From: Rubidibacter lacunae KORDI 51-2
GTDB lineage: Bacteria; Cyanobacteriota; Cyanobacteriia; Cyanobacteriales; Rubidibacteraceae
Reading direction: 5' to 3'
Length of the DNA stretch: 64,000 nt
Assembly (NCBI RefSeq): GCF_000473895.1
Contig: NZ_ASSJ01000079.1
Span: forward strand, 1-64,000
Each line of letters starts with the position of its first letter. Position 1 is the stretch's first letter. Below are positions 22,325-26,001 of this stretch, piece after piece. The position numbers and the translations under genes were made by a program. The notes beneath the pieces are model-generated. The model did no database searches. It was not told where the DNA came from and saw nothing but the letters and a program-made list of their open reading frames with translations.

Positions 22325-22389
22325 TGCCAGAATTTCTTCCGTTAAGACTGTGCATCATCTAGGCAAAGGAAGTTCCCAGTCTTCCAAGG

Positions 22390-22872
22390 TTATCGACAAA
22401 CAAAATCAGAGCGGACCCAAGCAACCCACTGTTTTGTTCCAACTTCCAGCCAAGTGCTTCCGTCCACACCGCGACTAAATGAATAGACAAGAACTAGCTC
22501 TCGGTCAGAGACTGTGTAATTGCGCTGTTCAAAGCGAGCAAAAACTCTCTCTCCTCCAGAGCCGACCTGAACTAATCCTTTAGGATGATTTGTTCCTGGT
22601 CCTGTACGTAGGTTTACGCTAGACCCTCTTAGTTCTTGTACAAATCCAACTTGAATAATTGCTTGCGTTCGCTGGCAAAAAAGAAAAATAATGAAGAGGA
22701 TTGAGTTAATACTGACTAAATCCTCTTCCGCATTGGAGACAGCATCCTTGCTAAGGAAACAGGCAAAGTGACGATAAAGGATTGCGCAGCTTACTGGTGG
22801 GGATTGTTTAGGGGCTATATTCCCCCAGCCATCCCCGAATCGCTGCAATCTTCTGAGACAATGATATGTCAT
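22390..22872 (-). CDS. small exported protein with C-terminal SH3b domain
   Basis: The frame gives up to 160 residues. The last ~85 residues form a bacterial SH3-type domain (RGSSVNLRTGPGTNH ... WLEVGTKQWVAWVRSDFVCR). A hydrophobic helix precedes it (SINSILFIIFLF), suggesting a signal peptide or anchor. The N-terminal ~65 residues before that helix are unlike a normal protein start, so the true start is probably an internal non-ATG codon or the gene is a truncated remnant. It is divergent from the NACHT gene, with the two ATGs only about 20 bp apart, so it might be part of the same accessory insertion. Such domains often bind cell-wall peptides. Confidence 0.5.
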   Translation of the reverse strand: MTYHCLRRLQRFGDGWGNIAPKQSPPVSCAILYRHFACFLSKDAVSNAEEDLVSINSILFIIFLFCQRTQAIIQVGFVQELRGSSVNLRTGPGTNHPKGLVQVGSGGERVFARFEQRNYTVSDRELVLVYSFSRGVDGSTWLEVGTKQWVAWVRSDFVCR

Positions 22873-22894
22873 CCCCCGAGCTGAGGTGCCGGCG

Positions 22895-25693
22895 ATGAGA
22901 TATCCGGGTAACAAGTTTGGCTTGAGCGTGACGAAGCCGGTATCGGTGTGGAACCAGGAGGTGAAGGCCGACTTTAGGAATCTGTTCAAAGCTCTCGGCA
23001 AAGCCGGGGTAGATGCGGTTTCTGGCAAATGGCTCGGGGTGGGCAAAGATGCAGTCGATGCACTGTCCGCACTGGGCTTGAAAGTAAATGAGCCGGGACA
23101 GTTGGCTTGGAGCCTGATTTACAACTCCCTGCAGCAGGCCACCGTAGAGCTGGCGATCGATTCTGAGGGGCTGCTGCCCGATGCCCCGGAGGACTTAGAA
23201 ACCTTTTGCGATCGCTTGGATTTGTCAGTGTTGGAGGCAACCGAGGTCGCGATCGGCGAGGACTTTTTCGCTCGTCCCGAGAACTTGTCGCTGCTGGAGC
23301 CCTGGCAGCAGGTGTTGCAGCGGTGGTTTATGGGATTTGGGGCGGACGAAAGGGAGGCAAAGACCATTGCCCAACGCCTGCCCAGCTATTTCCCGCTGGC
23401 AGTCGCGCGTGAATGGCGGGAAAACCAGACGACCTATGCCCCAATCCTGCAGGCTCTGGAGTCACCATTTAGCCAGGCAGCGGAGCGGGAGCTGGGATGG
23501 CGGCAATATCAAGCGTGGCTGAAGAAACAAGTGGCAGAGCCGCTGCTGGGAGAGCCCTTTGGTCTGGAAGATGTCTATGTCGATCCCTGTGCTTATTTCC
23601 GGCGCAAGTGCGAAGAGGATGGGGAGAGAAGTCGGTATGAGGAATGCGATCGCTACGAGCGCGTAGTGGTGAAGTTGGGGGCGGCGCTACGGGAATGGCT
23701 GCATCGAGCCGATCGGAATGACGCGATCCGGGTGGTGAGTGGTGGTCCGGGGTCGGGGAAGTCCTCTTTTGCCAAGATGTTTGCGGCGCGTCACGATTTT
23801 GACTTCCCCGTGTTGTTTGTGCCCCTCCATCAATTCGATTTGAAAGGGGACCTGGTGCAGTCTGTGGGGCAATTCGTGCGATACGAGGAGCTATCAGAAA
23901 ACCCCCTCGATCCAGATAATCGCGACCTGCGGCTTTTGATTATTTTTGATGGTCTGGACGAGCTGTCCAAGCAGGGCAAATTATCTGAAGGCGATGCTAA
24001 GGAATTTGTGCGCGAGGTAAACCAAAAAGTCAGCCAGATCAACCAACGCACGACTCACTTACAGGTGGTGATCACAGGGCGAGATGTGGCAGTACAAGGG
24101 GCTTTTCGCAATCTGGAGCGAGTTTTCCATGTGCTGCCTTATTTCGAGCCTGAAGCTAAACGATATGAAGAGAGCAACGAGTACTACATCGATGAAGGCG
24201 ATTGTTTGGCGGTCGATCTCCGGGATGTTTGGTGGCGCAAGTATGGTGAGGTGACCCAGAAGGCATATACAGGGATGCCTGAGGATCTAGATCGGGAGAA
24301 ACTCACCGAGATTACAGGACAGCCGCTGCTGAATTACTTGGTAGCTTTTACCTATGTAAAGGGCAAGCTCAACCTTTCTGATACAACCAACCTTAACTCC
24401 ATCTATGCCGATTTGCTTCATGAGGTTTACGAGCGTAGCTATGAGGGCAAAGGGAAGCGGCACAAAGCGATCGGCGATCTGTCCGAGGAAAATTTTCGCC
24501 GCATCCTTGAAGAAGTGTCGTTAGCTGCCTGGCACGGTGATGGGCGAACGACCACGGTTGGGGAGATTCGGCAGCATTGTCAGCGAAGCCGTTTGCAGCG
24601 TTTGCTCGAGCAATTTGAGGAAGGTGCTAAAGCTGGGGTGACGCGGCTCTTCCTGGCGTTTTATTTTCGCCAAAGTGGCAGCCGGGAAAACGAGCCGACG
24701 TTTGAGTTCACGCACAAAAGCTTTGGGGAATATCTGACGGCGGCGCGTATCGTGCGAGCCATGGCCCGCATCCAAGCCAAGCTCGACCAACGTGAAAAAG
24801 ATTTCGAGGAGGGCTGGGACGAACGAGACGCATTGCTCCATTGGGCAGAAATCTGCGGACCAACCAGGATGGACCCCTATCTGTTGGAGTTTGTCTGGAA
24901 TGAAGTGTCACTTCGGTCCAAGGAAGACGTGGCGAAATGGCAAAAGACCTTTGCTCGACTCATTGAGGAGATGCTGAAGCATGGGATGCCAATGGAGAAG
25001 ATCGTGCCGCCCCTGGTTTTCCATAAAGCCAATCGGTGGGCGATTCATGCGGAGGAGTGTTTGTTGGTGGCCTTGAATGCCTGTGCACGCGTTACACGAG
25101 AGGTTTCGACGGTTCAATGGACCGAACCAACAACATTTGGTAGTTGGCTTTTGCGGCTCCAAGGTCAGAGGGATTACGAAGACAAGAGTGTTGCTTCAAA
25201 ATGCCTTTCTTACCTCAATCTCTCGCAAGCAGAACTTTATGCGGCAAATCTGGATGAGGCGCATCTGGCTGGGGCGCATCTGGAAGGGGCGAATCTGTTT
25301 CGGGCGCATCTGGATCTGGCGAATCTGGCTGGGGCGAATCTGGAAGGGGTGGAACTGAAAGGGGCGGATCTGTCTGGGGCGGATTTGGAAGGGGCGCATC
25401 TGGCTGGGGCGGATCTGGCTAGAGCGCGTCTGGCTGGGGCGCATCTGGCTGGGGCGCATCTGGAATGGGCGATTCTGGCAGAGGCGGATCTGAAAGGGGC
25501 GGATCTGGCTGGGGCGCATCTGGATGGGGCGGATCTGGAAGGGGCGCATCTGGAAGGGGCGCATCTGGATGGGGCAGAACTGGATGGGGCGGAACTGGAA
25601 GGGGCGCATCTGGCTGGGGCAATAGGTCTTTTTGACAATCTCTCTTGTCCTGAAAAGTATCGCCTCAGAAAACCAATATCGGATGGGGGGTAA
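22895..25693 (+). CDS. NACHT (STAND) NTPase with C-terminal pentapeptide repeats, candidate anti-phage protein
   Basis: A 932-residue protein. Residues 1-270 are helical, with a segment (about 195-240) like the regions that precede NACHT in bacterial NACHT proteins. The NACHT core has Walker A GGPGSGKSS (283-291), Walker B LLIIFDGLDEL (about 346-356), VVITGRD (about 390) and the winged-helix-end motif FEFTHKSFGEYL (about 603-614). A ~150-residue linker leads to about 27 pentapeptide repeats (766-909), where leucine-rich repeats or TPRs act as sensors in relatives. Bacterial NACHT proteins include proven anti-phage factors; defence here is inference. ATG at 22895 is favoured by a GAGG site; a GTG at 22886 is possible. 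An SH3b gene diverges upstream and mobile elements follow. Confidence 0.8.
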   Translation: MRYPGNKFGLSVTKPVSVWNQEVKADFRNLFKALGKAGVDAVSGKWLGVGKDAVDALSALGLKVNEPGQLAWSLIYNSLQQATVELAIDSEGLLPDAPEDLETFCDRLDLSVLEATEVAIGEDFFARPENLSLLEPWQQVLQRWFMGFGADEREAKTIAQRLPSYFPLAVAREWRENQTTYAPILQALESPFSQAAERELGWRQYQAWLKKQVAEPLLGEPFGLEDVYVDPCAYFRRKCEEDGERSRYEECDRYERVVVKLGAALREWLHRADRNDAIRVVSGGPGSGKSSFAKMFAARHDFDFPVLFVPLHQFDLKGDLVQSVGQFVRYEELSENPLDPDNRDLRLLIIFDGLDELSKQGKLSEGDAKEFVREVNQKVSQINQRTTHLQVVITGRDVAVQGAFRNLERVFHVLPYFEPEAKRYEESNEYYIDEGDCLAVDLRDVWWRKYGEVTQKAYTGMPEDLDREKLTEITGQPLLNYLVAFTYVKGKLNLSDTTNLNSIYADLLHEVYERSYEGKGKRHKAIGDLSEENFRRILEEVSLAAWHGDGRTTTVGEIRQHCQRSRLQRLLEQFEEGAKAGVTRLFLAFYFRQSGSRENEPTFEFTHKSFGEYLTAARIVRAMARIQAKLDQREKDFEEGWDERDALLHWAEICGPTRMDPYLLEFVWNEVSLRSKEDVAKWQKTFARLIEEMLKHGMPMEKIVPPLVFHKANRWAIHAEECLLVALNACARVTREVSTVQWTEPTTFGSWLLRLQGQRDYEDKSVASKCLSYLNLSQAELYAANLDEAHLAGAHLEGANLFRAHLDLANLAGANLEGVELKGADLSGADLEGAHLAGADLARARLAGAHLAGAHLEWAILAEADLKGADLAGAHLDGADLEGAHLEGAHLDGAELDGAELEGAHLAGAIGLFDNLSCPEKYRLRKPISDGG
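25250..25622 (+). repeat. 15-bp coding minisatellite in NACHT gene
   Basis: About 24 units of a 15-bp sequence of the type GGGGCGCATCTGGCT/GAA run in tandem and encode A(H/D/N)L(A/E/D)G pentapeptides. The nucleotide identity between units is far higher than the protein fold would require, which points to recent expansion by slippage or recombination. Copy number is likely variable between strains. Confidence 0.85.
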
Positions 25694-25694
25694 T

Positions 25695-26001
25695 CCTGAA
25701 GTGTGTTGCTCATGCTGAGCTAGAGCACCGGTACAGAAGTCAAAGATCCTGCATTTTTTGCCCCCCCTGCCCCCCAGTTTTAGGGAGTTCTGAGTCCGGA
25801 AGTCCTCCAGAATTGGGGGATTTAGGGTGCTGAATAAGCTATGGGGCGACTAGCGTACCGGTGCTCTAGTCAGAGCAAGGGTTTGAGGCTTCGTCAAAAT
25901 CTTCATGAATAATCCAGGCTAGCCGCAATTCTGACTTCTGTAACGGTGCTCTAGGGCATGACCAAGTGCGAGTTCTGCACCTACACCCCCCAGCACTGAG
26001 C
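25695..26001 (-). repeat. dispersed ~85 bp repeat family, copy D, split by a MITE
   Basis: The left part (25695-25719) matches the CCTGAAGTGC...GCTGAG end of copy C, and the right part (about 25956-26001) matches its GTGNGNGTTCTGCACC...CACTGA part. The two halves are separated by a 235-bp insertion. It begins two bases after the NACHT stop codon. Confidence 0.65.
25720..25954. mobile_element. 235-bp MITE with 23-bp terminal inverted repeats
   Basis: The ends CTAGAGCACCGGTACAGAAG (25720 onward) and the reverse complement at 25932-25954 match over 22 of 23 bases. A further copy of the terminal motif, GTACCGGTGCTCTAG, sits internally at 25855-25869, so a shorter 150-bp unit (25720-25869) may be the basic element and the rest a second partial copy. 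It contains no coding frame. Flanks are consistent with a CTAG target. It interrupts copy D of the dispersed repeat. Confidence 0.7.

What the first reader, a model, noticed from the sequence alone, without database searches (positions are those of the whole stretch)
22895..25693. NACHT NTPase with pentapeptide-repeat C-terminus, next to mobile DNA
Sequence shows a helical N-terminal domain, a complete NACHT core (Walker A and B, FTHKSFGEYL) and, instead of leucine-rich repeats or TPRs, about 27 pentapeptide repeats as the C-terminal domain. NACHT proteins of bacteria are known anti-phage STAND proteins whose C-terminus senses the phage. A right-handed beta-helix sensor would be a distinct way to recognise phage DNA mimics or DNA-binding proteins. 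An SH3b exported-protein gene diverges just upstream and an IS lies downstream, an accessory-island setting.
Basis: partly seen in the sequence, partly recalled or inferred. Interest (0 to 1): 0.65.

Follow-up and report, generated by a model that had tools for sequence, protein, structure and literature searches.

The report
NLR-like switch with self-renewing sensor
A (probably cyanobacterial) relative of animal NLR immune receptors carries a C-terminal beta-helix of 15-bp repeats that is kept uniform and swapped quickly while its surface residues differ, which suggests a fast-evolving sensor; the protein family itself is already known and common.

Summary
Window 22895-25693(+) is one intact 932-aa ORF: helical N-domain (Pfam NNH3, 2e-44), NACHT module with intact motifs, and about 27 pentapeptide repeats. 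AlphaFold places the NACHT core with NLRC4/NLRP3 and the tail with pentapeptide beta-helices. The architecture is not unusual: pentapeptides are the standard C-terminus of NNH3-NACHT proteins (68 of 71 ORFs examined; NNH3 in 47 of 386 genomes of the phylum). No defence neighbours were found, and the IS200/IS605 element is incidental. What is new is how the array evolves. In this gene synonymous sites are nearly uniform across repeats while surface codons differ; it is the most homogenised of 16 arrays in its genome. Across the family there are two regimes. 'Fixed' arrays keep their repeat number and are usually at least as conserved as the NACHT core. 'Turnover' arrays, including most of this gene's clade, change by 2-12 repeats and mostly lag 9-24 identity points behind the core. 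This resembles high-internal-conservation NLRs of fungi; I did not find it described for bacteria. Best reading: an NLR-like switch with a rapidly renewed beta-helix sensor. Phage defence is plausible but untested.

The parts
22895..25693 (+). NNH3-NACHT-pentapeptide protein, 932 aa
22961..23566 (+). NNH3 domain (NACHT N-terminal helical domain 3), putative effector or adaptor
   Evidence: Pfam 2.2e-44; genome search coordinates; no solved relative by fold
23732..24136 (+). NACHT NTPase domain (Walker A, Walker B, sensor)
   Evidence: Foldseek to NLRC4/NLRP3
24647..24738 (+). winged-helix segment with the FTHKSFGEYL motif
   Evidence: conserved in 18 homologues
25223..25621 (+). pentapeptide array, about 27 units of 15 bp; buried codons GCG/CTG and GGG nearly uniform, i-1 and i+1 codons variable
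22390..22745 (-). divergent SH3-like exported-protein gene, frameshifted in its signal-peptide region relative to the intact copy on contig C14
22329..23364 (.). 1.04-kb segment duplicated on contig C14 (89% identical): there the SH3 gene is intact and the NACHT gene decayed
25866..25923 (.). about 58-bp dispersed repeat with some three dozen copies in the genome
26145..27841 (.). IS200/IS605 element (TnpA minus strand, TnpB plus strand)

Best explanation
The gene encodes an NLR-like STAND switch. The pentapeptide beta-helix is the ligand-sensing arm, the NACHT module is the ATP-dependent oligomerisation switch, and the NNH3 helical domain is the output part. Shown here: the domains, intact NACHT motifs, predicted folds, internal homogenisation of the array, and rapid array replacement between relatives in the turnover class. 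Inferred: that ligand binding to the helix surface releases autoinhibition, that oligomerisation brings the NNH3 domains together, and that the outcome is growth arrest or cell death. The array is probably kept homogeneous by unequal recombination between its 15-bp units. This would let surface residues at i-1, i+1 and i+2 be reshuffled without breaking the solenoid, so the sensor can track a changing ligand, most simply phage or other non-self proteins.
For: Domains and motifs. Folds: human NLRC4 and NLRP3 at Z 18.7 and 17.8 over 327-340 residues, beta-helices at Z 24.6. Array: pS 0.21 and pN/pS 1.4; at i-1, pN 0.41 against pS 0.03; the lowest pS of 16 arrays in its genome, where 13 of the other 15 have pS 0.68-0.89. 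His, Asp, Asn and Gly codons in the array are uniform and differ from the preference of six neighbouring genes. Family: 17 of 68 arrays are homogenised. Pairs with core identity of at least 70%: turnover arrays differ by 7.0 units on average and are mostly 9-24 points less identical than the core; fixed arrays differ by 1.0 unit and usually equal or exceed the core (Mann-Whitney p 2e-5 and 5e-6). Sister species with 95% core identity keep the array ends but have replaced the middle (L066 and L067). Pooled surface codons of turnover arrays show fewer synonymous steps than neutral expectation (56 against 74.5, p 0.0075). Patchy presence: 1 of 9 genomes of its family.
Against: No defence genes beside this gene or beside its close relatives. 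No ligand, phage or phenotype data. The test for diversifying selection is modest and assumes a ts/tv ratio of 2; the pairs are not independent. Some stand-alone pentapeptide proteins also have homogenised arrays, so the pattern is not unique to NLR-like proteins. The genome is a 99-contig draft and repeats can be misassembled, although the same pattern occurs in genomes of 1-10 contigs.
Confidence: 0.55

Rival explanations
1. The array is a structural scaffold or spacer whose length and surface are under weak constraint. Homogenisation is neutral slippage and unequal crossing-over of a recently expanded 15-bp tandem repeat.
For: Tandem 15-bp DNA repeats are prone to slippage; homogenised arrays also occur in some stand-alone pentapeptide proteins. 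L067, one of the fast pair, has an in-frame stop.
Against: Other members of the family with similar repeats keep their number fixed and are more conserved than the core. Surface codons vary at non-synonymous sites while synonymous sites do not.
Confidence: 0.25
2. The protein is a housekeeping or developmental regulator (stress or programmed cell death) that senses a host ligand, not an anti-phage receptor.
For: A 24-member sister clade has fixed arrays and shares conserved neighbours such as a Fur-like gene; no defence neighbours.
Against: This gene and its clade are patchy (1 of 9 family genomes) and mostly have turnover arrays, unlike the fixed clade.
Confidence: 0.3
3. The beta-helix is a DNA mimic acting on gyrase or other DNA-binding proteins, as Qnr and MfpA do.
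For: It matches QnrB1 and MfpA folds (Z about 17-18) and is net acidic on all four faces.
Against: Closer matches are non-mimic beta-helices (NP275-276, HetL, designed solenoids); in homologues the i+1 and i+2 residues are often Arg or Lys (ANLER, ANLKR), so acidity is not conserved.
Confidence: 0.05

Closest known systems
Cyanobacterial NNH3-NACHT-pentapeptide proteins (Pfam PF22735 + PF05729 + PF00805)
   Same: Same three domains in the same order; 42% identical over residues 10-841 to the best genome hit, up to 50% in alignment to members of its clade.
   Different: Long branch of its own; sporadic in its family; array of the homogenised class with His/Asp-rich i-1 positions.
Bacterial NACHT anti-phage proteins (bNACHT; e.g. 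bNACHT25/32, PMC12169576)
   Same: Tripartite N-effector, NACHT and C-sensor plan.
   Different: No nuclease or other recognisable effector; beta-helix sensor instead of NCH1 or SNaCT; no significant PADLOC match; no phage data.
Fungal NLRs with high internal conservation (het-d/het-e NACHT-WD and related; PMC4986451, PMC12222747)
   Same: NACHT plus a C-terminal repeat array with near-identical units, repeat-number change and variable surface positions.
   Different: Pentapeptide beta-helix in a bacterium instead of WD, ANK or TPR in fungi; no known incompatibility function; no allele data yet.
DGR-diversified NACHT/STAND sensors (PMC10907252)
   Same: NACHT switch with a diversified C-terminal sensor.
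   Different: No C-type-lectin variable region and no reverse transcriptase near the gene; the RT found in this genome lies on contig C41 beside a separate SUMF1-like gene, and the array shares no sequence with it.

Membership tests
NNH3-NACHT-pentapeptide STAND family | NNH3 domain over the Pfam cut-off | tested here: met
   152.4 bits against cut-off 27
NNH3-NACHT-pentapeptide STAND family | NACHT with Walker A, Walker B, sensor and winged helix intact | tested here: met
   fold match to NLRC4/NLRP3
NNH3-NACHT-pentapeptide STAND family | C-terminal pentapeptide array | tested here: met
   68 of 71 family ORFs have at least 12 units
bNACHT anti-phage proteins | NACHT module in tripartite STAND plan | tested here: met
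bNACHT anti-phage proteins | recognisable anti-phage effector or C-domain of known clades, or PADLOC match | tested here: not met
   (no PADLOC family below E 0.01); NNH3 alone shows no solved relative
bNACHT anti-phage proteins | protection against phage | not testable with these tools
   needs a phage challenge
High-internal-conservation NLR | repeats near-identical to each other | tested here: inconclusive
   pS 0.21, mean unit DNA identity 73% (76% in the 26 core units), lowest pS of 16 arrays in the genome; but the 85% amino-acid cut-off used for fungi (PMC4986451) is not reached, because two or three positions of the five-residue unit vary
High-internal-conservation NLR | repeat-number polymorphism among alleles or close relatives | tested here: inconclusive
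   shown for turnover members in related species; no second strain of this species was available
High-internal-conservation NLR | positive diversifying selection at surface positions | tested here: inconclusive
   synonymous deficit p 0.0075 pooled over 17 arrays

The most novel reading that the evidence does not exclude
One bacterial NLR-like family holds two kinds of receptor side by side: 'fixed' receptors with a conserved beta-helix for an invariant (perhaps host) ligand, and 'turnover' receptors whose beta-helix is continually homogenised and reshuffled to follow changing non-self ligands. That would be a bacterial, DGR-independent counterpart of fungal HET and plant R-gene repeat diversification.
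Probability: 0.35. Interest if true: 0.75.

Novelty: new variant of a known kind. Interest (0 to 1): 0.5.

Why it matters
If right, bacteria diversify an NLR-like sensor by recombining 15-bp units of a beta-helix, without a reverse transcriptase. The fixed and turnover classes within one family would allow a direct test of which receptors guard a constant ligand and which chase a changing one. A pentapeptide solenoid with two or three variable residues per unit on a constant frame is also a simple, designable recognition surface.

Tried and rejected
(1) Defence-island setting: PADLOC on ten window neighbours gave only TnpB as Cas12f-like and generic HEAT, CRP-like and radical-SAM matches; on 88 neighbours of turnover and mid loci and 84 of fixed loci only scattered or generic matches. 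(2) The synteny NACHT then HEAT gene shared with L102: the HEAT gene has a clear orthologue in nearly all relatives and the upstream genes differ, so I give it little weight. (3) The SH3-like gene as functional partner: found at no other NACHT locus and decayed here. (4) DGR as diversifier: one RT gene in the genome, on another contig next to a SUMF1-like gene, no sequence shared with the array; I found no template repeat there. (5) Exchange with other pentapeptide genes of the genome: no shared DNA with the other fetched stretches. (6) N-domain identity: Foldseek best E 1.0 and VIA Z under 5, profile search of PDB nothing convincing, so effector type is open. (7) A scan of genome contigs with the core found no relative; phages none, five plasmids.

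Full report
What is there. The ORF at 22895-25693 on the plus strand encodes 932 residues without a stop; the ATG has a GAGG 9 nt upstream. Pfam finds NNH3 (NACHT N-terminal helical domain 3) at 23-224, NACHT at 280-408 and pentapeptide repeats to about 910. All NACHT motifs are present, and most are invariant across 18 homologues. AlphaFold2 gives a good model (pLDDT 77, pTM 0.72). Foldseek and VIA-align place the NACHT to winged-helix part with human NLRC4, NLRP3 and rabbit NOD2, and the tail with pentapeptide beta-helices. The N-domain modelled alone (pLDDT 80) matches nothing solved.

How common it is. NNH3 occurs in 47 of 386 genomes drawn across the phylum and in none of 14 control genomes. 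Of 71 NNH3-NACHT ORFs read out of those loci, 68 carry an array of at least 12 pentapeptides. The architecture is therefore the family norm. The gene is sporadic in its own family: 1 of 9 genomes. It also occurs outside the cyanobacteria, on a Skermanella plasmid, where it is cut by an IS256 element. That the host is a cyanobacterium is my inference from gene content and hits; the tools did not name it.

Surroundings. Neighbours are ordinary genes (a QueE-like radical-SAM protein, a HEAT protein conserved in nearly all relatives, a membrane protein, a CRP-like regulator, an NdhB-like gene; names beyond the Pfam hits are my reading of the ORFs) plus one IS200/IS605 element. PADLOC finds no credible defence gene. 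A 1.04-kb segment covering the divergent SH3-like gene and the start of the NACHT gene is duplicated on contig C14 at 89% identity. There the SH3 gene is intact and NACHT is broken; here NACHT is intact and SH3 is frameshifted. The two genes have decayed in reciprocal fashion, which speaks against a tight functional link. No relative elsewhere has this SH3 gene beside it.

The array. The units are a mosaic of few codons: Ala GCG, Leu CTG and Gly GGG almost throughout, with CAT, GAT, AAT or GAA at i-1 and GCT, GAA, GAT, AAA or TCT at i+1. These third positions differ from the preference of six neighbouring genes (CAC, GAC, GGC) and hardly vary. Measured between units, pS is 0.21 and pN 0.29; at i-1, pN is 0.41 and pS 0.03. 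Of 15 other pentapeptide arrays in the same genome, 13 are saturated (pS 0.68-0.89) and two are at 0.40. The array shares no DNA with those other genes, so homogenisation is internal.

Two regimes in the family. Of 68 arrays, 17 have pS under 0.35 ('turnover'), 43 have pS over 0.55 ('fixed') and 8 lie between. Among pairs of homologues with at least 70% core identity, fixed arrays differ by 1.0 unit on average and are usually as conserved as the core or more so. Turnover arrays differ by 7.0 units and are typically 9-24 points less conserved (10 of 11 pairs; Mann-Whitney p 2e-5 and 5e-6; pairs are not independent). Example: L066 and L067 share 95% of the core and both array ends, but the middle has been replaced; L067 has an in-frame stop, so the intact set L074/L105/L106/L170 is the cleaner case. 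On a tree of the cores the window gene falls in an 11-member clade (SH-aLRT 100) with six turnover, four intermediate and one fixed array, while a 24-member clade is wholly fixed; the regimes are clustered but need several changes. Fixed members share more neighbours (0.47 against 0.30). Pooled surface codons of the turnover arrays have fewer synonymous steps than neutral expectation (56 of 332 against 74.5, p 0.0075).

Meaning. Fungal NLRs with high internal conservation show near-identical repeats, repeat-number change and variable surface positions (PMC4986451). I found no report of this for bacterial NACHT proteins in the held library; that is a search of open-access papers only. DGR-driven variation of NACHT sensors is known (PMC10907252) but does not fit here. 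Homogenised arrays also occur in a few stand-alone pentapeptide proteins, so the behaviour is not restricted to NACHT proteins.

Verdict. The interpretation as a novel defence protein is only partly supported: the architecture is known and the defence role untested. The mode of evolution of the array is the part worth following.

Noticed in passing
window 25866-25923: About 58-bp dispersed repeat with roughly three dozen copies (89-98%) over the genome, just downstream of the NACHT gene; looks like a small non-coding repeat family; no notable hairpin.
   Followed up: partly
window 22329-23364 and L059:7823-8859: Duplicated SH3/NACHT segment with reciprocal decay of the two genes.
   Followed up: yes
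L060:5464-6200 (contig C89) and L013, L018: Stand-alone pentapeptide proteins with homogenised arrays; L013 and C89 share an HWNxWR-like N-terminus, C89 with an in-frame stop.
   Followed up: partly
L181:3-2415 (contig C41): SUMF1/FGE-like gene followed by a reverse transcriptase, resembling a diversity-generating retroelement; no template repeat found in a quick look.
   Followed up: partly
L180:6001-9510, Skermanella mucosa plasmid pSM-3: Alphaproteobacterial NACHT-pentapeptide homologue (29.5%) split by an IS256 transposase.
   Followed up: no
loci L080, L083, L088, L114, L115, L117 and others: Fixed-array NNH3-NACHT genes with conserved neighbours, among them a Fur-like gene in nine loci: a possible conserved regulatory role.
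   Followed up: no
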